A DNA stretch of 64,000 bases from Burkholderia lata (GTDB lineage Bacteria; Pseudomonadota; Gammaproteobacteria; Burkholderiales; Burkholderiaceae), in assembly GCF_000012945.1 (NCBI RefSeq), contig NC_007511.1:1488001-1552000 (forward strand), given 5' to 3'. Of this stretch, positions 2,906 to 30,559 are shown one piece after another; position 1 is the stretch's first letter; the number at the start of each line of letters is the position of its first letter. Under the pieces are notes generated by a model, which was not told where the DNA came from, ran no database searches, and worked only from the letters and a program-made list of their open reading frames with translations. The translations under genes and the position numbers were made by a program.

Positions 2906-3726
2906 GACCCGACGCGCCCACCGGTCGGCCGGCCCACGCGTGCGATTGCCACATCCACATCTATGACGATGCCTATCCGCTCGCGCCGACGGCGACGTTC
3001 CGTCCGCCGCACGCGCCGGTGGATGCGTATCGCCGGGTGCAGCAGACGCTCGGCCTTGCCCGCGTCGTGATCGTGCAGCCGACCGGCTATGGGGTCGACA
3101 ACCGTTGCCTGCTCGACGCGCTGGCTGCATTCGGCCAGCAGGCGCGCGGCGTCGCGACGTTGCCGGTCGACGTGCCGGATGCCGAGCTGGCGCGGTTGCA
3201 CGCGGCGGGCGTGCGCGGCGTCCGGTTCATGATGTTGGCGGGCGGCCTGGCGCGGTGGGACGAACTGGAGCGGATGGCCGCGCGGATCGCGCCGCTTGGC
3301 TGGCACGTCGACCTGCAGCTCGACGGCCGCACGCTGCCCGAGGTCGTGCCGTTGCTGTCCGCGCTACAGGCGCGTGTCGTGATCGATCACACGGGCAAGT
3401 TCCTGACGCCCGTCGCGCCGGATGCGCCCGAGTTTCTCGCGCTGCGGCGCCTGCTCGACCGTGGCCACGCATGGGTGAAGCTGTCCGCGCCGTACGAGAC
3501 GTCGCGCTCGGGCGCGCCCGGTTACGACGATGTCGCGCGTCTCGCCGCCGTTTTGGCGCGTCACCATTCGGCGCGGTGCGTATGGGGCAGCAACTGGCCG
3601 CACCCGAACGCGTCGCCGGTGCCCGACGACCTGCGCCTGCTCGGCTGGCTGGACGACTGCACGGCGGACGATGCGGTGAGCCGCGCGATTCTGGTCGACA
3701 ACCCGGCCGTACTTTACGGATTCTGA
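2902..3726 (+). CDS. Amidohydrolase-2 family hydrolase (LigI/lactonase-like)
   Basis: A 274-residue TIM-barrel hydrolase of the amidohydrolase-2 family. The metal-site HxH motif is in CDCHIHIYD (His17 and His19), a VIDHTGK segment carries a further barrel histidine, and the C-terminal WGSNWPHP motif is characteristic of the 2-pyrone-4,6-dicarboxylate lactonase/galactarolactone isomerase group. ATG at 2902 overlaps the TGA of the dehydrogenase, which fixes this start. In context with a TRAP transporter and 2-hydroxyacid dehydrogenase it probably opens a lactone made from a sugar acid or dicarboxylate. That role is inferred from family and neighbourhood only. Confidence 0.82.
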   Translation: MRPDAPTGRPAHACDCHIHIYDDAYPLAPTATFRPPHAPVDAYRRVQQTLGLARVVIVQPTGYGVDNRCLLDALAAFGQQARGVATLPVDVPDAELARLHAAGVRGVRFMMLAGGLARWDELERMAARIAPLGWHVDLQLDGRTLPEVVPLLSALQARVVIDHTGKFLTPVAPDAPEFLALRRLLDRGHAWVKLSAPYETSRSGAPGYDDVARLAAVLARHHSARCVWGSNWPHPNASPVPDDLRLLGWLDDCTADDAVSRAILVDNPAVLYGF

Positions 3727-5189: not shown

Positions 5190-6323
5190 ATGAAAAAACT
5201 TCTTGGCGCCATCGCATTCCTGGTCGTGCTCGTCGGCGTATGGATCGTGCATCAGGGCGGCCTGTCGACGCTGATTCCCGCGCATGACGCGGCCCCGGGC
5301 TCGACGTCCGCGCAAAGTGGCGACACCGGGCAGTCCGCGCAGACATCGCCGTCGTCCAACGTACTGCCGGCCGGCTTCACGCCGCAGGCCAGCACGCTGA
5401 AATCGATTGCCGAAAACGGCATCGTGCGGATCTCCGTGCAGAACCCGAGCGAACCGTTCTTCGGCGAGGACAAGGGCGCGCCGCACGGCTTCAACGTCGA
5501 GTTCGCGCGGCTGCTGTTCGCGGATCCGTCGTTCTCGCACGGCGGCAAGCCGGTGGCCGTCGATACGCGTCACGAGGTCGACACCTATCCGGGCGTGCCG
5601 AAGCAGCTGCTCGATACGGACGCGAAGGGGAACCACGTGGTCGACGTGGCGATGGACGGGCTGACGTTCCCGGACAACACGCCGTCGGGTGTGGTCTATT
5701 CGGTGCCGTACGTCGACGATTTCGGCTACTCGCTGATCGTGCGGCAAGGCTCCGCGATCCGCTCGACCGACGATCTCGCGGGCAAGACGGTCGGCATCCT
5801 GAAGGGCGACCCGGACGTGCGCGCGTTCGTCACGCGCCAGTATCCGAACGTGAAGTTCGTCGAGGTCGACGATTCCGATCCGGCGTTCATCGCGAAGAGC
5901 ATCGACGGTCATACGGTCGACGCGTTCATCTACGACTATCCGTTCGCGGTCAGCTCGATCAAGGACACCGACCTGAAGTTCGCGGTGACCAAGCTCGACG
6001 GCTCGAACATCGCGTACAAGATCGGCGTGCGCGCGGACGACCAGGATCTGCTGATCTACCTGAATGCCGCGATCGCGAAGCTCAAGCAGTCGCCGCAGTA
6101 TCTCGACCTGCTGCGCAAGTACTTCGTCAGCGACCAGGCGGTGACGACTGCGGCCGCGTCGGGCGAACACACGTATGTGGTGAAGGCGGGCGACACGCTG
6201 AACATGATCGCGGCGAGCAAGCTCGGCAGCGGCCAGCGTTATCGCGAGATTCAACGCCGGAACAACCTCGCCAATCCGAACCTGATCCTGGCGGGCCAGC
6301 ACCTCGTGATTCCGGTGCGGTAA
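5190..6323 (+). CDS. Solute-binding (SBP_bac_3) protein with C-terminal LysM domain
   Basis: A 377-residue exported protein. An N-terminal hydrophobic signal or anchor (residues 1-22) is followed by a Ser/Thr/Gln-rich linker, a type-3 periplasmic solute-binding domain (about 60-325, with the typical GFNVEFARLL and DDLAGKTVGILKG segments) and a C-terminal LysM repeat (about 331-377, HTYVVKAGDTLNMIA... to LVIPVR). LysM domains bind peptidoglycan, so the sensor domain is probably tethered to the cell wall or held at the anchor. No ABC permease or ATPase is nearby, which argues against a plain transport role. It follows the coiled-coil membrane protein and ends 47 bp before a strong terminator. 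Confidence 0.78.
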   Translation: MKKLLGAIAFLVVLVGVWIVHQGGLSTLIPAHDAAPGSTSAQSGDTGQSAQTSPSSNVLPAGFTPQASTLKSIAENGIVRISVQNPSEPFFGEDKGAPHGFNVEFARLLFADPSFSHGGKPVAVDTRHEVDTYPGVPKQLLDTDAKGNHVVDVAMDGLTFPDNTPSGVVYSVPYVDDFGYSLIVRQGSAIRSTDDLAGKTVGILKGDPDVRAFVTRQYPNVKFVEVDDSDPAFIAKSIDGHTVDAFIYDYPFAVSSIKDTDLKFAVTKLDGSNIAYKIGVRADDQDLLIYLNAAIAKLKQSPQYLDLLRKYFVSDQAVTTAAASGEHTYVVKAGDTLNMIAASKLGSGQRYREIQRRNNLANPNLILAGQHLVIPVR

Positions 6324-11994: not shown

Positions 11995-12666
11995 ATGATC
12001 GTCAACCGCCTTATCTCCGAGATCCTGTTCGGCTTCACCGGCCTGATCGGCATCATCAACCCGATCGGCATCGCGTTCCTGTTTCTCGAACGGACCGAGG
12101 CGCTGACCGAGCAAGAACGCGATCTGCTCGCGAGGAAGGTCGCGTTCAACGCGTTCATCGTGCTGATGGTCGCGTTCTTCGCCGGCACGCCGGTGCTGCA
12201 CTTCTTCGGGATTTCGATGGAAGCGCTGCGGATCGGCGGCGGCTTCGCGGTCGCCGTCGCGGGCTGGCAGATGCTGAACGAACCCGACGGCCCGGGCGGC
12301 GGCGACACGCCGGTCAAGCCGATCGACGCGAACGCGATCATGACGCGCGCGTTCTTCCCGTTGACCATGCCGCTGACGGTCGGCCCGGGCTCGATCGCGA
12401 CCGCGATCGCGCTGAACGCGAACCGCACGCACAAGCTGTCGGAATTCATGCTGTCGAGCATCGTGTCGATCGCCGTCTCCGTGCTGGTGGCGATCGTGAT
12501 CTGGCAGGTCTACAGCCGCTCCGCGCTGCTGTCGCGCTACCTCGGCAGCGAAGGCACCAAGGTCGCGAAGCGCGTGTCGGCATTCCTGCTGCTGTGCATC
12601 GGCGTGCAGATCATGCTGACCGGCTTTTCCGCGTTCCTGCAGCCGATCGCCGACCAGGCCAAGTAA
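11995..12666 (+). CDS. MarC family integral membrane protein
   Basis: A 223-residue membrane protein with six hydrophobic segments. The N-terminal GLIGIINPIGIAFLFL segment and the later LTMPLTVGPGSIATAIAL helix are the two hallmarks of the MarC family (UPF0056), where NP/GPG motifs sit in related halves. Members are inner-membrane proteins of unsettled function; the old link to multiple antibiotic resistance has not held up. ATG at 11995 was chosen because the hydrophobic core starts soon after; the frame is open upstream. It appears to be a single gene. Confidence 0.85.
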   Translation: MIVNRLISEILFGFTGLIGIINPIGIAFLFLERTEALTEQERDLLARKVAFNAFIVLMVAFFAGTPVLHFFGISMEALRIGGGFAVAVAGWQMLNEPDGPGGGDTPVKPIDANAIMTRAFFPLTMPLTVGPGSIATAIALNANRTHKLSEFMLSSIVSIAVSVLVAIVIWQVYSRSALLSRYLGSEGTKVAKRVSAFLLLCIGVQIMLTGFSAFLQPIADQAK

Positions 12667-25113: not shown

Positions 25114-25695
25114 ATGAGTGTGCGAGCTGGATCGATGATGACCGTCGTTCGTCTGGCCGTTTTCCTGGCTGCCGTCGCTACGGGAGCAGGGTGCTCTCGT
25201 GCGACGGATGACGTCGCGCTACCCGGCGGCAAGGATGCCGGGATCGGGCTGAAGCTGAATGCGCTGAACTACACGGACGTGCCGATCGGTACCTTCTCTG
25301 TCGACGGCACCTGGGGCGGAAATGTGGCCGCCCGTATCGGCAGCGCCGGCGGCGGCATCACCTGCTGCGTGTCCGTTCCTGAAAAATGGCGCCCGGGATT
25401 GACGGTCGAGGTCGAATGGCGCAACGACGAGATGGTCCGGCGCAATCCGCATGCAATGGCCAGCCGGGTCGTGCCGATCGAGCAGTATGGTTCGTTCTCG
25501 GACGGCTATCTGTGGATCGTGTTTTTCCCGGGAGACACGATCAAGGCATACGCGTCGCCGTGGCTGCCGGGCGCACCGGCGTTTCCTGAGGGATTACAGG
25601 TGCCCAGCAAGGCTTGCCCGGGACACTTTACGGTGTTGAACAGCAGCCCTGACTGCCCGGCACCGGACAAAAGAATCGCGGGAGTCGCGCCATGA
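25114..25695 (+). CDS. DUF3304-like exported (probable lipo-) protein
   Basis: A 193-residue exported protein. A hydrophobic N-terminal segment (about 8-26) ends in ATGAGCSR, a weak lipobox whose Cys27 could be lipidated. The body (LNALNYTDVPIGTFSVDG..., GGGITCCVSVPEKWRPGLTVEVEW) matches what I know of DUF3304 proteins, found mostly in Burkholderia and often near type VI secretion effector genes; no secretion genes are in this window. It is followed closely by a second exported protein on the same strand. Function unknown. Confidence 0.7.
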   Translation: MSVRAGSMMTVVRLAVFLAAVATGAGCSRATDDVALPGGKDAGIGLKLNALNYTDVPIGTFSVDGTWGGNVAARIGSAGGGITCCVSVPEKWRPGLTVEVEWRNDEMVRRNPHAMASRVVPIEQYGSFSDGYLWIVFFPGDTIKAYASPWLPGAPAFPEGLQVPSKACPGHFTVLNSSPDCPAPDKRIAGVAP

Positions 25696-26767: not shown

Positions 26768-28363
26768 GTGGTTCGCCAGACGCTTGCTCGCGCCGTGCTT
26801 CGCACCGCGTTGATCGGGGGCGTGTTTGCCGGCTGTTTGCTGCCGCCGCCGGCTGCCCTTGCCGGAACCCTCTCGCCGCCCGTCACGCCACACCCGATGA
26901 AGCAGCGGCCGGCTGCTACGCCTTATGCGATGCCGGTCGATTTTCCGGCGATCGTCGACCGCTACGGCCCGGCGGTCGTGACCATCATGACCGCCGCACC
27001 CGACCAGCAGGCCGGCGGGCCGTCCTTCTCGATCCTCGATCCCGACGATCCGCTCGCCGCGTTCTTCCGGCATGACGCACCGCCGCCCGCGCAGGGCCCG
27101 CAGGCGCCAACCCAGGCGCAAGCCCAGGCCCAGGCGCCGGCACCCGACACGGCGCCGCGCGCGGTATCGGGCAGCGGCTCGGGTTTCATCGTCAGTGCCG
27201 ACGGCCTGATCCTCACCTCCGCCCACGTGGTCGACGACGCGACCGACGTGACGGTGCGGCTCACCGACCGCCGCGAATTTAAGGCGACCGTGCTGGCCGT
27301 CGATCCGCAAAGCGATGTCGCGGTGTTGCGTGTCAACGCAACGAAGCTGCCGTTCGTGCGCGTCGGCGATTCGTCGAAGGTACGCGCGGGCGAACCGGTG
27401 ATGACGATCGGTGCGCCGGACGGGTCGGGCAACACGGTCACGGCCGGTATCGTCAGCGCGACGTCGCACCGGCTGCCGGATGGCAGCGCGTTCCCGTTCT
27501 TCGAAACCGACATCGCGCCGAACCCCGACAACTCGGGCGGCCCCGTGTTCAATCGCGCGGGCGACGTGATCGGTATCGCGGTGCAGGTCTATACGGGCGC
27601 CGACCGCTACGCGAGCATGACGTTCGCGATCCCGATCGCGTTTGCCGCAAAGGTGCGTGCGCAACTGCAGAAGCAGATGCAGGCGCAGGCACAGCAGTCG
27701 CAGGCGCCGGGCGAGCCGTCATCCGGTAATGCGATCGGCGTCGACGTGCAGGATGTCGGGATCGGGCTCGCGGCGGCGTTCGGGCTGCCGCGTCCGGCGG
27801 GCGCGCTCGTCAATGGTGTCGCGCCCGGCTCGCCGGCTGCCGCGGCCGGCGTGAAGCCCGGCGACGTGATCGTGAAGCTGGGCGACAAGACGATCGGCCG
27901 CTCGGCCGAGCTGAACGACCTGGCCGCCGCGCTGCCGCCCGGCCAGAAGGCGCCGCTGCGGCTGATCCGCAACCGTGCGCCGGTGATGCTGACGATCACG
28001 GGCGCCGACGAGGCCGCCGGCAACGCGGGTGCGACCGTCGGCATGGCCACGCCGAAGGCGGCTGCACGACCGGGGGCGGGAGCAGGGGCAGCCGACGGCG
28101 GCGACCGCCTCGGGCTGACGATGCACGCGCTCAGCGACGACGAGCGCCGCTCGACGGGGCTCGCGGTGGGAATGATGGTGGACGCGGTGCACGGCCCGGC
28201 AGCCACTGCGGGCATCCAGCCGGGCGATGTCGTGCTGGAGCTCAACGATACGCTGCTCGAGACGCCCGATGACATACCGACGCTCGAAGCGAACGGCAGC
28301 GTGATCGCGGTGCTGATCCAGCGCAACAACGCAAGGAAGTTCGTGTCGGTGCGTGCGCGTTAG
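26768..28363 (+). CDS. HtrA/Do-like serine protease with two PDZ domains and altered active-site motif
   Basis: A 531-residue exported DegP-type protein. A signal peptide (about 1-35) is followed by a Gln/Pro/Ala-rich linker, a trypsin-like domain and two PDZ domains (about 320-420 and 445-525). The triad is His153 (TSAHVVDD), Asp183 (SDVAVLRV) and Ser256, but the nucleophile motif reads PNPDNSGGP, so the glycine that normally builds the oxyanion hole (GNSGG) is Asp254; the preceding TDAAINP is TDIAPNP. It may be inactive or act as a chaperone. GTG 26768 is the start because GGAGG lies 6 bp upstream. It works in the periplasm in protein quality control. Confidence 0.87.
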   Translation: MVRQTLARAVLRTALIGGVFAGCLLPPPAALAGTLSPPVTPHPMKQRPAATPYAMPVDFPAIVDRYGPAVVTIMTAAPDQQAGGPSFSILDPDDPLAAFFRHDAPPPAQGPQAPTQAQAQAQAPAPDTAPRAVSGSGSGFIVSADGLILTSAHVVDDATDVTVRLTDRREFKATVLAVDPQSDVAVLRVNATKLPFVRVGDSSKVRAGEPVMTIGAPDGSGNTVTAGIVSATSHRLPDGSAFPFFETDIAPNPDNSGGPVFNRAGDVIGIAVQVYTGADRYASMTFAIPIAFAAKVRAQLQKQMQAQAQQSQAPGEPSSGNAIGVDVQDVGIGLAAAFGLPRPAGALVNGVAPGSPAAAAGVKPGDVIVKLGDKTIGRSAELNDLAAALPPGQKAPLRLIRNRAPVMLTITGADEAAGNAGATVGMATPKAAARPGAGAGAADGGDRLGLTMHALSDDERRSTGLAVGMMVDAVHGPAATAGIQPGDVVLELNDTLLETPDDIPTLEANGSVIAVLIQRNNARKFVSVRAR

Positions 28364-28367
28364 GGCG

Positions 28368-28397
28368 TTGACGCGCTCGGCATCGTCCGCCTACCAT
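28368..28397 (+). promoter_or_regulatory. Predicted sigma-70 promoter for the leader peptide/exporter transcript
   Basis: TTGACG at 28368-28373 and TACCAT at 28392-28397 are 18 bp apart. The predicted start is near 28404, about 48 nt before the leader ORF. It sits right after the stop of the protease gene, so the exporter has its own transcript. Confidence 0.5.
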
Positions 28398-28451
28398 CGT
28401 CCGATATCGCAGGCAGTCAGCCATCAGCCAGACAATCAGGAGCCATCCGGC

Positions 28452-28502
28452 ATGAAAGCAGCATTCGTCATCGTAGTCGTCCACAGGCGCAGGGTCCGGT
28501 AG
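28452..28502 (+). CDS. Candidate 16-residue leader peptide (attenuation ORF)
   Basis: The ORF reads MKAAFVIVVVHRRRVR and has a good ribosome site (AGGAG at 28438-28442, 9 bp before the ATG). It ends 24 bp before an intrinsic terminator that stands in front of a drug-exporter gene. The AFVIVV segment resembles the arrest region of macrolide leader peptides such as ErmCL (IFVI), and the RRRVR end contains the Arg-X-Arg pattern known to stall macrolide-bound ribosomes. Two of the arginine codons are AGG, rare in this GC-rich genome. The resemblance is by eye. It would sense slow or drug-stalled translation and control readthrough. Confidence 0.6.
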   Translation: MKAAFVIVVVHRRRVR

Positions 28503-28600
28503 CGGCACCGCGCCGGCACCCATGCGCCCCCGACTCGTTCGGGGGCTTTTTTTTGCATTGCGCACGGCCGTGCGGCACGTGCGCGGATGGCATCCGCTTG
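28487..28600 (+). promoter_or_regulatory. Attenuator-like leader RNA of the Bcr/CflA exporter
   Basis: Three structures follow each other. Hairpin 1 pairs 28487-28499 (inside the last leader codons) with 28513-28527, with two bulges. The terminator hairpin (28526-28546) is listed separately. A third inverted repeat, 28583-28589 with 28591-28597, buries the GGATGG ribosome site directly before the TTG start at 28598. A palindrome CGCACGGCCGTGCG lies at 28561-28574. A ribosome stalled on the leader would open hairpin 1; I could not find a clear antiterminator pairing, so the mechanism is only partly explained. Confidence 0.55.
28526..28554 (+). terminator. Intrinsic terminator between leader peptide and exporter
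   Basis: An 8-bp stem (GCCCCCGA with TCGGGGGC, 28526-28533 and 28539-28546) with a 5-nt loop is followed by eight T residues at 28547-28554. It lies 160 bp after the protease stop but only 44 bp before the exporter start, and downstream of a small ORF, so it fits an attenuator better than a simple gene end. Confidence 0.88.
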
Positions 28601-29809
28601 CAATCGAACCTGCCGGTCGCTTCCGAACGGGCGTCGCCGAGACACGCGACGCTGATCCTGCTGTGCGCATGCTCGGTGCTGCCGCTGAGCCTGTTCCTGC
28701 CGTCGCTGCCGGCCATCGCGCGCGACCTGCGCGCCGATTACGCGCTCGTAGCGTTGTCGCTCGGCGGTTACGCGGCGGTGGCCGCATCGCTCGAATTCGT
28801 GATGGGGCCGCTGTCGGACCGGTTCGGGCGGCGGCCGGTCGTGCTGGCGAGCGTCGGCGTGTTCGCGCTCGGCTCGTTGGGCTGCGCGATGGCGACCGAT
28901 ATTCGTGCGTTTCTCGCATGCCGGCTGATGCAGGCGGCGATCACGTCGGTCTATCCGGTGTCGATGGCGACGATCCGGGACACCGGCGGCGGTGCGCGCG
29001 CGGCGAGCCGGATCGGCTATGCGGCGATGGCGGCCGCGTTCGCGCCGATGCTCGGCCCCACGCTCGGCGGCGCGCTCGACCAGACGATGGGCTGGCGCGC
29101 GAGCTTCTGGCTGCTCGGCGTGGCGGGCATCGCGCTGTTCGTCTGGTGCGCGTTCGATCTCGTCGAAACCCACGCGAACCGGTCGTCGAGCCTCGGGCAG
29201 CAGCTTCGCGCGTATCCGGCGCTGCTCCGTGCGCGCCGTTTCTGGGCCTATGCGCTCTGCATGGCGTTTTCGACCGGCTCGTTCTACGCGTTCCTGGCCG
29301 GCGCACCGCTCGCCGCGCAAACGGTGTTCGGCATCGCGCCCGCGAAGATCGGCGTCTACATGGGGACCGTCACGGCCGGTTTTGTGTGCGGCAGCTTCCT
29401 GGCCGCGCGTTACGCGCGCCGCTACGCGCTGGCCACGACGATCCTGTGCGGACGGGTGGTCGCGTGCGCGGGGCCGTTGGTCGGCCTCGCGCTGATGTTC
29501 GGTGGCGCGACGCAGGCGATCGCATGGTTCGGGCCGTGCGTGCTGGTCGGCATCGGCAACGGGCTGACCAATCCCGGCGCGCATGCCGGCGCGGTGTCGG
29601 TGCGCCCGGAGCTGGCGGGGAGCGCGTCGGGGCTGGCGGGCGCGATGACGATCGCCGGTGGCGCCGCGCTTTCGTCGTTGACGGGCGCGGTGCTGACGGC
29701 TGGCAACGCGGGCTATGCGCCGCTGGCGATGATGCTGCTGTCTGCCGCGATCGCGCTGGCGGCGGCCGTCTGCGTGCGGGTGTTCGATGCGCGGGACGCG
29801 GGGCCGTGA
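28598..29809 (+). CDS. Bcr/CflA-type MFS multidrug exporter
   Basis: A 403-residue major facilitator drug exporter with twelve membrane segments. The Bcr/CflA group is recognised from LSLFLPSLPAIARDL in segment 1, the loop 2-3 motif MGPLSDRFGRRPVVL, and SVYPVSMATIRDTG in segment 4. These pumps use the proton gradient to expel drugs such as chloramphenicol, bicyclomycin or sulfonamides. An ATG at 28553 overlaps the upstream terminator and is unlikely; TTG at 28598, with GGATGG upstream, is the proposed start. The leader peptide and terminator upstream suggest induction by translation inhibitors. Confidence 0.85.
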   Translation: MQSNLPVASERASPRHATLILLCACSVLPLSLFLPSLPAIARDLRADYALVALSLGGYAAVAASLEFVMGPLSDRFGRRPVVLASVGVFALGSLGCAMATDIRAFLACRLMQAAITSVYPVSMATIRDTGGGARAASRIGYAAMAAAFAPMLGPTLGGALDQTMGWRASFWLLGVAGIALFVWCAFDLVETHANRSSSLGQQLRAYPALLRARRFWAYALCMAFSTGSFYAFLAGAPLAAQTVFGIAPAKIGVYMGTVTAGFVCGSFLAARYARRYALATTILCGRVVACAGPLVGLALMFGGATQAIAWFGPCVLVGIGNGLTNPGAHAGAVSVRPELAGSASGLAGAMTIAGGAALSSLTGAVLTAGNAGYAPLAMMLLSAAIALAAAVCVRVFDARDAGP

Positions 29810-29956
29810 GCGCAGGCGCGCAGGACCAGGCACGGGTGCGGGCGCGCTACCGTGCCGCGGGCGATTGGCGGACAATCGGTCGAATATCGGGAGACGACGA
29901 ACCCTCCGCGCACCGAGTCATCCCCGACGCGCGCAGGGTGACTGGACGAGGATGCG

Positions 29957-30496
29957 ATGAGCGACTTTTCTGATTTTCAGCGGGAGATTGCCGACGCCGC
30001 GAGGGCGACCTTCAGGGCGCTGCGGGCGCTGCACCCGGACGAGCATTTCTACGCGTTCGCGCTGTACACCGACAGCGGTGCGATGACGGTGGTGCCGGCG
30101 GCCAACTCGGTCGAGGGCCTGCGCCGGACCCGCGAGCAACAGGCCGTTCCGGACGACGACCCGTGGTATGCGTGGGGCTTTTCCGAATGGGCGTACGCGG
30201 CGGCGGAAGCGTCGCCGTTCAATGCGATCTGCGGCAAGCTCGCCGATGACTTGCTGAGCCCGCAGTTTGTCCGGTCGAGATTCCCGGAATTTTCGCGGCA
30301 ACTGCACGCCTCGATGATCGAGGCGTTGCACTTGCTCGACCGCGAAGGCCTGTTCGGCACGGGCGACGAAAGGGCGGCGATCACGCTGTTCGTGTCGATC
30401 AGCGACGACGACGCTGCCGAGGCGCTGGAAAACGAATCGGCGAAGGCGCTGAATCCGCCGGCCGTTGCCGACGCATTCCTGCGCCGTTACGACTGA
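29957..30496 (+). CDS. DUF4303 family protein
   Basis: A 179-residue soluble protein of the DUF4303 family. Its N-terminal part (FQREIADAARATFRALRALHPDEHFYAFALYTD) and the following DDDPWYAWGFSEWAYAA segment match the family layout. Relatives are small cytoplasmic proteins seen next to toxin or immunity genes in some bacteria, but nothing here marks it as such. GAGG precedes the ATG. It starts 147 bp after the exporter and probably has its own promoter. Confidence 0.75.
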   Translation: MSDFSDFQREIADAARATFRALRALHPDEHFYAFALYTDSGAMTVVPAANSVEGLRRTREQQAVPDDDPWYAWGFSEWAYAAAEASPFNAICGKLADDLLSPQFVRSRFPEFSRQLHASMIEALHLLDREGLFGTGDERAAITLFVSISDDDAAEALENESAKALNPPAVADAFLRRYD

Positions 30497-30559
30497 GCGA
30501 ATTCGGGATGTCGCACGGCGACCTCGGGCAGGCGGCCGCCATGCGTGCTGCGTGACGGC

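What the first reader, a model, noticed from the sequence alone, without database searches (positions are those of the whole stretch)
28368..28600. Possible translation-sensing attenuator in front of a Bcr/CflA drug exporter
The sequence shows a promoter-like pair, a 16-codon ORF with a good ribosome site, a hairpin overlapping its last codons, an intrinsic terminator with eight T, a hairpin burying the ribosome site of the next gene, and a TTG start. The peptide MKAAFVIVVVHRRRVR combines an ErmCL-like AFVI stretch with an Arg-X-Arg end and two rare AGG codons. Known macrolide leader peptides use both features. Together they suggest the exporter is switched on when a drug stalls the ribosome. 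The weak point is that no antiterminator pairing was found by eye.
Basis: partly seen in the sequence, partly recalled or inferred. Interest (0 to 1): 0.8.

Follow-up and report, generated by a model that had tools for sequence, protein, structure and literature searches.

The report
Ribosome-watched attenuator before Burkholderia exporter
A short conserved leader gene, a long hairpin and a transcription terminator sit in front of a putative drug exporter in Burkholderia and some Paraburkholderia and probably switch the exporter on when ribosomes falter early in the leader, although neither the trigger nor the switch has been tested in a cell.

Summary
The anatomy is real and conserved: promoter, strong ribosome site, 16-codon ORF, 17-bp hairpin (P1) over its last five codons and stop, and a terminator. 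I compared 39 intact loci, 4 of them from Paraburkholderia. Reading frame survives indels, and upstream of P1 synonymous changes exceed expectation only in the leader frame (37 seen, 23.3 expected). The leader travels with the exporter, not with neighbouring htrA. Two of four leaders cut off from it have decayed. It is therefore most likely a cis-acting leader-peptide attenuator.

AFVI occurs in 1 of 39 peptides and the Arg-X-Arg end in 32 of 39. A ribosome stalled there ends 13-16 nt short of the terminator and removes P1. The RBS-burying hairpin is not conserved.

The missing antiterminator may be P1 itself. P1 and the terminator compete for the same GCC. Closing the terminator's foot gains 8.8 kcal/mol when a ribosome blocks P1 and 0.4 when P1 can form (32 of 39 loci). 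The modelled switch point is a rare GTA codon. I infer that early stalling turns the exporter ON and C-terminal stalling OFF. Inducer, substrate and direction are untested.

The parts
28368..28397 (+). sigma-70-type promoter of the leader transcript (TTGACG, 18 nt, TACCAT)
   Evidence: 1 found, 0.2 expected; GTTGAC invariant and CTANNAT kept in the 33 loci aligned
28438..28442 (+). AGGAG ribosome site of the leader ORF
   Evidence: one-base variants in a few loci (e.g. L022, L024, L028, L029, L040, L042)
28452..28502 (+). leader ORF, MKAAFVIVVVHRRRVR*, rough consensus M-[KN]-[AT]-[AT]-x-hydrophobic-I-V-V-V-[HS]-R-R-[RM]-V-R*
   Evidence: open and in frame in 39 of 39 intact loci, 16 sense codons in 33
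28473..28475 (+). rare GTA valine codon (codon -9 counted from the last sense codon), the predicted decision codon
   Evidence: GTA is 5 of 211 Val codons in 8 window genes but codon -9 in 32 of 39 leaders; modelled switch point
28486..28528 (+). P1: hairpin whose 5' arm is the last five codons; the stop codon lies at its loop end
   Evidence: GGCGCA/TGCGCC invariant in 33 of 33 distinct rows
28526..28554 (+). intrinsic terminator (8-bp stem, 5-nt loop) and T8
28526..28528 (+). GCC shared by P1 (with GGC 28486-28488) and by the terminator foot (with GGC 28544-28546)
28560..28584 (+). third hairpin between terminator and exporter start; no regulatory evidence
   Evidence: not better than shuffles
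28585..28589 (+). exporter ribosome site, GGATG here, GGAGG in the other clade-1 rows
28598..29809 (+). Bcr/CflA-type MFS exporter, TTG start
   Evidence: scanned from 28553: TIGR00710 197.4 bits (cut-off 200.9), CmlA/FloR model 135.9 bits (cut-off 450), Pfam MFS_1 146.4 bits; start

Best explanation
The element is a cis-acting leader-peptide transcription attenuator for the exporter. SHOWN by comparison: a 16-codon leader with frame-specific selection; a long hairpin P1 made from its last five codons and stop; and an intrinsic terminator touching P1, kept together with the exporter. INFERRED: P1 is the antiterminator. P1 and the terminator compete for the same GCC (28526-28528). If a ribosome has moved onto the last nine codons, P1 cannot form, the terminator closes to its foot next to the T-run and transcription stops. 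If the ribosome is missing, or halted at codon 7 or earlier (first GTA codon still waiting in the A site), P1 forms first, takes the terminator's foot and polymerase more often reads on into the exporter. The switch would thus report early failure of leader translation, from a drug or from shortage of charged tRNA. My estimates: cis-acting ribosome-sensing attenuator 0.85; the P1/terminator foot switch in this direction 0.45.
For: Leader ORF open in 39 of 39 intact loci, with 16, 17, 19 or 24 sense codons. Over codons 2-11: 37 synonymous single-change codons against 23.3 expected in frame 0, no excess in frames +1 and +2 (14 against 16.9; 5 against 13.2). Leader and exporter stay together where no htrA is found in the 6.5-kb stretch (L038-L040), and the 4 Paraburkholderia orthologues of at least 71% identity all have it. 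In L038-L040 the exporter ATG is 29 nt after the T-run, little room for a separate promoter, so readthrough is the likely supply. Where the exporter was deleted (L033) or moved 8.9 kb off (L032), 7 and 4 of 49 near-invariant columns changed, against 0-3 in 39 intact loci, 28 of them with 0. Closing the terminator foot gains 0.4 kcal/mol with P1 and 8.8 without in 32 of 39 loci; 38 of 39 lie between -2.2 and +1.1 with P1. With a modelled ribosome's P site on codon -10 the gain lies between -2.2 and +1.1 in the 38 loci with a foot, and on codon -9 between -10.0 and -2.1; codon -9 is the rare GTA in 32 of 39.
Against: At equilibrium in free RNA the outermost pair of the window's terminator foot still forms with probability 0.77 when P1 is allowed, so the switch would be graded and rests on folding order and on the cost of closing the foot in the polymerase. 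L038 has no shared foot, and L012 shares one pair and shows no gain with codons -4 and -1 in the P site. P1 is too conserved to show much covariation (1 double change, reached by 51 of 500 shuffles). Of four leaders apparently cut off from the exporter, L031 and L042 have 0 and 2 changes, no more than intact loci, and L032's 4 is barely above the highest intact one, L102 with 3. Three genus genomes have the exporter without the leader. The column permutation gives only p = 0.027. No transcript, toeprint or induction data were available.
Confidence: 0.5

Rival explanations
1. One reading: a macrolide or similar drug stalls the ribosome at Arg-Val-Arg, and that stall itself blocks the terminator, as in B. 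subtilis tlrB.
For: Terminal Arg/Lys-X-Arg in 32 of 39 peptides, with R14 to K and V15 to A or G tolerated. tlrB also lacks an overlapping antiterminator and ends in RYR (PMC6851288, passages).
Against: 7 of 39 peptides end RRMVR without the motif. The ribosome's edge lies 13 nt before the terminator base with the last codon in the P site, so 16 nt with Val there, whereas in tlrB it covers the base. Opening P1 favours the terminator. AFVI is private to the window.
Confidence: 0.15
2. Phenicol or oxazolidinone version of the best model: conserved Ala/Thr at residues 3 and 4 let these drugs stop the ribosome at codons 4-5, before P1, which switches the exporter on.
For: Residues 3 and 4 are both Ala or Thr in 36 of 39 peptides; in the 30 16-codon ORFs the second base is fixed and the third varies. 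Chloramphenicol and linezolid arrest best with Ala, less Ser/Thr, penultimate (PMC8987054, passages). The exporter's second-best NCBIfam model is CmlA/FloR. The stall lies upstream of the switch point.
Against: Ala and Thr are common after start codons (recalled); L024, L030 and L034 lack the pair. The NCBIfam score is far below the CmlA/FloR cut-off (135.9 against 450). No induction data.
Confidence: 0.2
3. Amino-acid attenuator: rare GTA codons sense valyl-tRNA(UAC), or the Arg codons sense arginyl-tRNA, and the MFS protein moves an amino acid or related metabolite.
For: GTA at codon -9 in 32 of 39 and -8 in 26 of 39, against 5 of 211 Val codons in 8 window genes; codon -9 is the modelled switch point.
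Against: Arg codons are equally explained by P1 pairing. Two loci have CCA (L030, L034) and one CTA (L101) at -9. An exporter turned on by valine shortage has no obvious logic.
Confidence: 0.15
4. Independent small RNA or small mRNA that ends at a normal terminator, the exporter being expressed only by leak.
For: The terminator core forms with probability of at least 0.99 even with P1 allowed in 36 of 36 loci. The leader persists after insertions in L031 and L042 and after loss of the exporter in L033.
Against: Changes at near-invariant columns in L033 and L032, co-occurrence with the exporter in two genera, no second strong match in the genomes searched (strict filters, 10 candidates scored per genome: nothing between 29.7 and 76 bits).
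Confidence: 0.1
5. P1 is a DNA operator (inverted repeat) for a repressor rather than an RNA element.
For: 17-bp interrupted inverted repeat downstream of the promoter.
Against: The two arms are an ORF end and a stretch reaching into the terminator; by my reading, changes at 28519, 28522 and codon -3 shift the RNA pairing register rather than keep DNA symmetry; the leader frame is under selection.
Confidence: 0.04

Closest known systems
tlrB (yxjB) leader, Bacillus subtilis
   Same: Short leader peptide ending Arg-X-Arg, intrinsic terminator, no overlapping antiterminator found, resistance gene downstream (PMC6851288, passages)
   Different: There the stalled ribosome covers the terminator base and RYR is required; here the stall site is 13-16 nt short, and the last codons form a hairpin that shares the terminator foot
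mef(E)/mel leader (MTASMRLR), streptococci
   Same: Efflux gene under transcription attenuation with a short Arg-X-Arg leader peptide (PMC4335068, passages)
   Different: 327-nt leader with several inverted repeats; Gram-positive; sequences not compared here beyond the peptide
PA5471.1 leader of armZ, Pseudomonas aeruginosa
   Same: Gram-negative leader peptide proposed to attenuate transcription in response to ribosome-targeting drugs (PMC12057347, passages)
   Different: Controls an antirepressor of mexXY, not the exporter directly; leaders not compared here
cmlA leader of Tn1696
   Same: MFS chloramphenicol exporter with a 9-aa leader peptide (PMC8876359, passages); the exporter here matches the CmlA/FloR model below cut-off
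   Different: Translational attenuation by hiding the exporter's ribosome site; here that hairpin is not conserved and a terminator is present
toiL uORF, Escherichia coli
   Same: uORF that reports ribosome stalling by at least five antibiotic classes at different positions (PMC12121999, abstract and section list)
   Different: Acts on a ribosome site and Rho, not an intrinsic terminator

Membership tests
Leader-peptide transcription attenuators | translated short ORF upstream | tested here: met
   39 of 39 open; frame-specific synonymous excess; by comparison only, no protein data
Leader-peptide transcription attenuators | intrinsic terminator between ORF and gene | tested here: met
Leader-peptide transcription attenuators | alternative structure exclusive with the terminator | tested here: inconclusive
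   P1 shares 3 nt (fewer in L012, L026, L039, L040; none in L038); free-RNA probability of the outermost foot pair still 0.77 in the window
Leader-peptide transcription attenuators | readthrough changes with leader translation | not testable with these tools
   needs transcript mapping or reporters
Macrolide +X+ leaders (ErmDL, MefEL, TlrB) | conserved Arg/Lys-X-Arg at the stall site | tested here: not met
   32 of 39; absent in 7 RRMVR peptides
Macrolide +X+ leaders (ErmDL, MefEL, TlrB) | stalled ribosome disrupts the terminator | tested here: not met
   edge 13-16 nt short of the base; terminator favoured, a model only
ErmCL-type leaders | IFVI stall motif (recalled) | tested here: not met
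   IFVI in 0 of 39, FVI in 1
Translation attenuators (cmlA, cat, ermC) | hairpin hiding the gene's ribosome site | tested here: not met
Amino-acid attenuators | run of codons for the regulated amino acid | tested here: inconclusive
   Val and Arg codons enriched, but the substrate is unknown and Arg codons are constrained by P1
Rfam families | match at gathering score | tested here: not met
   window 27000-30500: best 22.9 bits against 50; L042, L073, L101: none
Bcr/CflA MFS exporters | TIGR00710 above cut-off | tested here: inconclusive
   197.4 bits against 200.9

The most novel reading that the evidence does not exclude
A three-nucleotide switch: one GCC is pulled either into a hairpin built from the leader's own last codons or into the terminator's foot, and one rare GTA codon decides. 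The conserved Ala/Thr start makes the leader a phenicol-type sensor, so that drug arrest before the GTA codon turns on a CflA-type exporter, while arrest at the Arg-rich end keeps it off.
Probability: 0.15. Interest if true: 0.75.

Novelty: new member of a known kind. Interest (0 to 1): 0.55.

Why it matters
From recall, few leader-peptide attenuators of exporters are described in Gram-negative bacteria. This one occurs in named Burkholderia such as B. cenocepacia and B. cepacia, where inducible efflux matters for therapy (recalled), and it makes a short, testable prediction: the position of a stalled ribosome, early or late in 16 codons, decides in opposite directions. If the foot-sharing switch holds, it shows how a terminator can be controlled by only three shared bases without a separate antiterminator, an anatomy that searches for large exclusive hairpins would miss.

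Tried and rejected
Leader-exporter fusion by frameshift or stop readthrough: rejected, the frame relation takes all three values among the loci. A conventional antiterminator: none; terminator core probability is at least 0.99 with P1 allowed in 36 of 36 loci. Known RNA family: none at gathering score in the stretches searched. Paralogous leaders elsewhere: none seen (strict filters, 10 candidates scored per genome; below the 76-bit matches the next is 29.7 bits and covers P1 alone; its locus L074 and five further weak loci gave no exporter match). Independent evidence from covariation: too little variation. Annotated relatives in the plasmid collection: three chromosome-size records, no annotated feature under the match; regions opened for two of the three. 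Papers on a Burkholderia leader of this kind: none evident in the titles and abstract starts listed, and one search listed no paper; the supplement of PMC5688073 (main-text passages seen), with 82 short 5'UTRs of B. cenocepacia, could contain it and could not be read here.

Rows dropped before counts: L027 (same genome as L031, leader cut), L103 (same place as L073), L032 and L033 (decayed, told apart), L035-L037, L041 and L105 (exporter without detectable leader). Not used in the counts: L043-L072 (repeats of places already held) and the named loci L080-L100, L106 and L107.

Full report
WHAT IS THERE. The sequence holds a sigma-70-type promoter (28368-28397), an AGGAG ribosome site, a 16-codon ORF (28452-28502, MKAAFVIVVVHRRRVR*), a hairpin P1 (28486-28528) whose 5' arm is the last five codons, an intrinsic terminator (28526-28546) with T8, and a Bcr/CflA-type MFS exporter (TIGR00710 197.4 bits, just under its cut-off of 200.9) starting at TTG 28598. 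P1 folds at -32.1 kcal/mol (z -4.66) and the terminator at -17.1 (z -4.65). TTG 28598 is in frame in each clade-1 locus for which one search found an exporter anchor (no anchor in L031 and L042); TTG 28553 is not.

CONSERVATION. In one search, 37 of 65 genus genomes hold the leader by BLAST: 33 contiguous with the exporter, 3 split from it (G061, G033, G047, the last on two contigs) and 1 without exporter (G051). Three more (G060, G023, G012) have the exporter without a detectable leader; the other 25 have short matches or none. A covariance model of the core scored at least 80 bits in 36 same-genus genomes and 76 bits in one other (G398) of the 398 genomes searched; the next match is at 29.7 bits. 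Among 144 Paraburkholderia genomes, 5 have an exporter at E 1e-60 or better. The four at 71-72% identity all carry the leader (66-76 bits), the one at 57% does not. Named carriers include B. cenocepacia NCTC13227, B. cepacia LK29, B. ubonensis and P. fungorum (21 records).

THE ORF IS PROBABLY TRANSLATED. The 39 intact loci (35 from the genus, 4 from Paraburkholderia) all keep start, open frame and stop; 33 have 16 sense codons, the others 17, 17, 17, 19, 19 and 24. In the part upstream of P1 (codons 2-11, 29 distinct 16-codon sequences), single-change codons along a minimum spanning tree are synonymous in 37 cases, 23.3 expected, in frame 0, but 14 (16.9) and 5 (13.2) in the other frames; a cruder permutation of columns gives p = 0.027. 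Residues 3 and 4 are both Ala or Thr in 36 of 39. The peptide ends RR[RKM][VAG]R in all 39; the last codon is CGG except in L101, where CGT keeps the Arg. In the L101 fold the codons for the last Arg and most of Val are unpaired, in L073 partly paired, yet the residues stay, which hints at constraint on the peptide; in Burkholderia, pairing alone could fix them.

IT BELONGS TO THE EXPORTER. In L038-L040 no htrA gene is found in the 6.5-kb stretch and leader plus exporter remain. There the exporter ATG is 29 nt after the T-run, leaving little room for a separate promoter. Where the exporter is deleted (L033) or displaced by an 8.9-kb insertion (L032), 7 and 4 of 49 near-invariant columns are changed, against 0-3 in intact loci (28 of 39 have none), and the -10 box reads CTG instead of CTA. 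Against this, L031 (1.4-kb insertion) has no change, L042 (exporter on another contig) has two, and L032 is barely above the highest intact locus.

HOW IT PROBABLY WORKS. But P1 and the terminator share GCC 28526-28528. With the foot open, closing its pairs gains 8.8 kcal/mol if P1 is blocked and only 0.4 if P1 can form, identically in 32 of 39 loci; six others lie between -2.2 and +1.1 with P1, and L038 has no foot. Because closing the foot is the step next to the T-run (established knowledge of intrinsic termination, recalled), I infer that P1 lowers termination. I then placed a ribosome with its leading edge 15 nt from the first base of the P-site codon (toeprint distance of 15 to 16 nt as in PMC6851288). 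With codon -10 in the P site the gain is -0.4 in 32 of 38 loci (range -2.2 to +1.1); with codon -9 it is -8.8 in 33 of 38 (range -10.0 to -2.1); further upstream, at -11 and -12, it ranges from -3.9 to +1.4; further downstream it stays at -2.1 or beyond at the positions tallied (-8, -7, -6, -4, -2, -1), except in one locus at -4 and -1, L012. Codon -9 is GTA in 32 of 39 leaders, though GTA is 5 of 211 Val codons in 8 window genes. So a ribosome waiting for the first GTA leaves P1 free, and one past it removes P1. Predicted: early arrest or failed initiation, exporter ON; arrest at the Arg-rich end, or a ribosome still there, OFF. The weak points are that free RNA at equilibrium still closes the outermost foot pair with probability 0.77 in the window (0.26 in L039 and L040, 1.0 in L034), that a toeprint offset of 16 would move the edge by one base, that timing of ribosome and polymerase is unknown, and that a pause may be needed as in tlrB.

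The ErmCL-like AFVI is in this sequence only (1 of 39); Arg/Lys-X-Arg ends 32 of 39 peptides and is lost in 7 that read RRMVR. A ribosome stalled there ends 13 nt (last codon in the P site) to 16 nt (Val in the P site) before the terminator, unlike tlrB where it covers the base (PMC6851288, passages). The hairpin over the exporter's ribosome site is not conserved. A better-placed drug candidate is a phenicol or oxazolidinone, which arrest with Ala, less Ser or Thr, penultimate (PMC8987054, passages): residues 3-4 fit and lie upstream of the switch point. This is a lead, not a test.

VERDICT. A real, conserved and, as far as my searches show, undescribed leader-peptide attenuator candidate; a known kind with an unusual three-base overlap. 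Inducer, exporter substrate and the direction of the switch remain to be tested.

Noticed in passing
L032 5031-8614: An 8.9-kb insertion between leader and exporter in one Burkholderia genome carries a Gabija pair (GajA 1058.8 bits, GajB 919 bits), a PDC-S15 candidate defence protein and an ORF that looks like an integrase by eye.
   Followed up: partly
L031 about 5304-5335, L032 about 12594-12617, L035 about 3127-3162, L037 about 2981-3020 (oriented coordinates): Four genomes share a similar end motif (about CGACACCCACGAAAATCCACGAAGAAC, shorter in L032) just before the exporter's start region, as if related mobile elements repeatedly insert near this terminator.
   Followed up: no
L042 4672-4794: Directly after the terminator T-run the sequence looks like the start of a group II intron (recalled motif; class C introns target terminators, recalled); Rfam at gathering score found nothing in this contig end.
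   Followed up: partly
window 25114-25695: DUF3304 protein with a sub-cut-off match to the Tli1a immunity protein family (81.7 bits, cut-off 110).
   Followed up: no
L036 about 3080-3260 (oriented coordinates): One genome keeps htrA, the promoter and a terminator-like hairpin before the exporter, while no leader is detected by BLAST.
   Followed up: no
window 28473-28481: GTAGT at codons -9/-8 gives a TAG stop in the +1 frame just before P1, and up to 10 of 39 leaders extend this to GTA at codon -7; it may have a role beyond rare codons.
   Followed up: no
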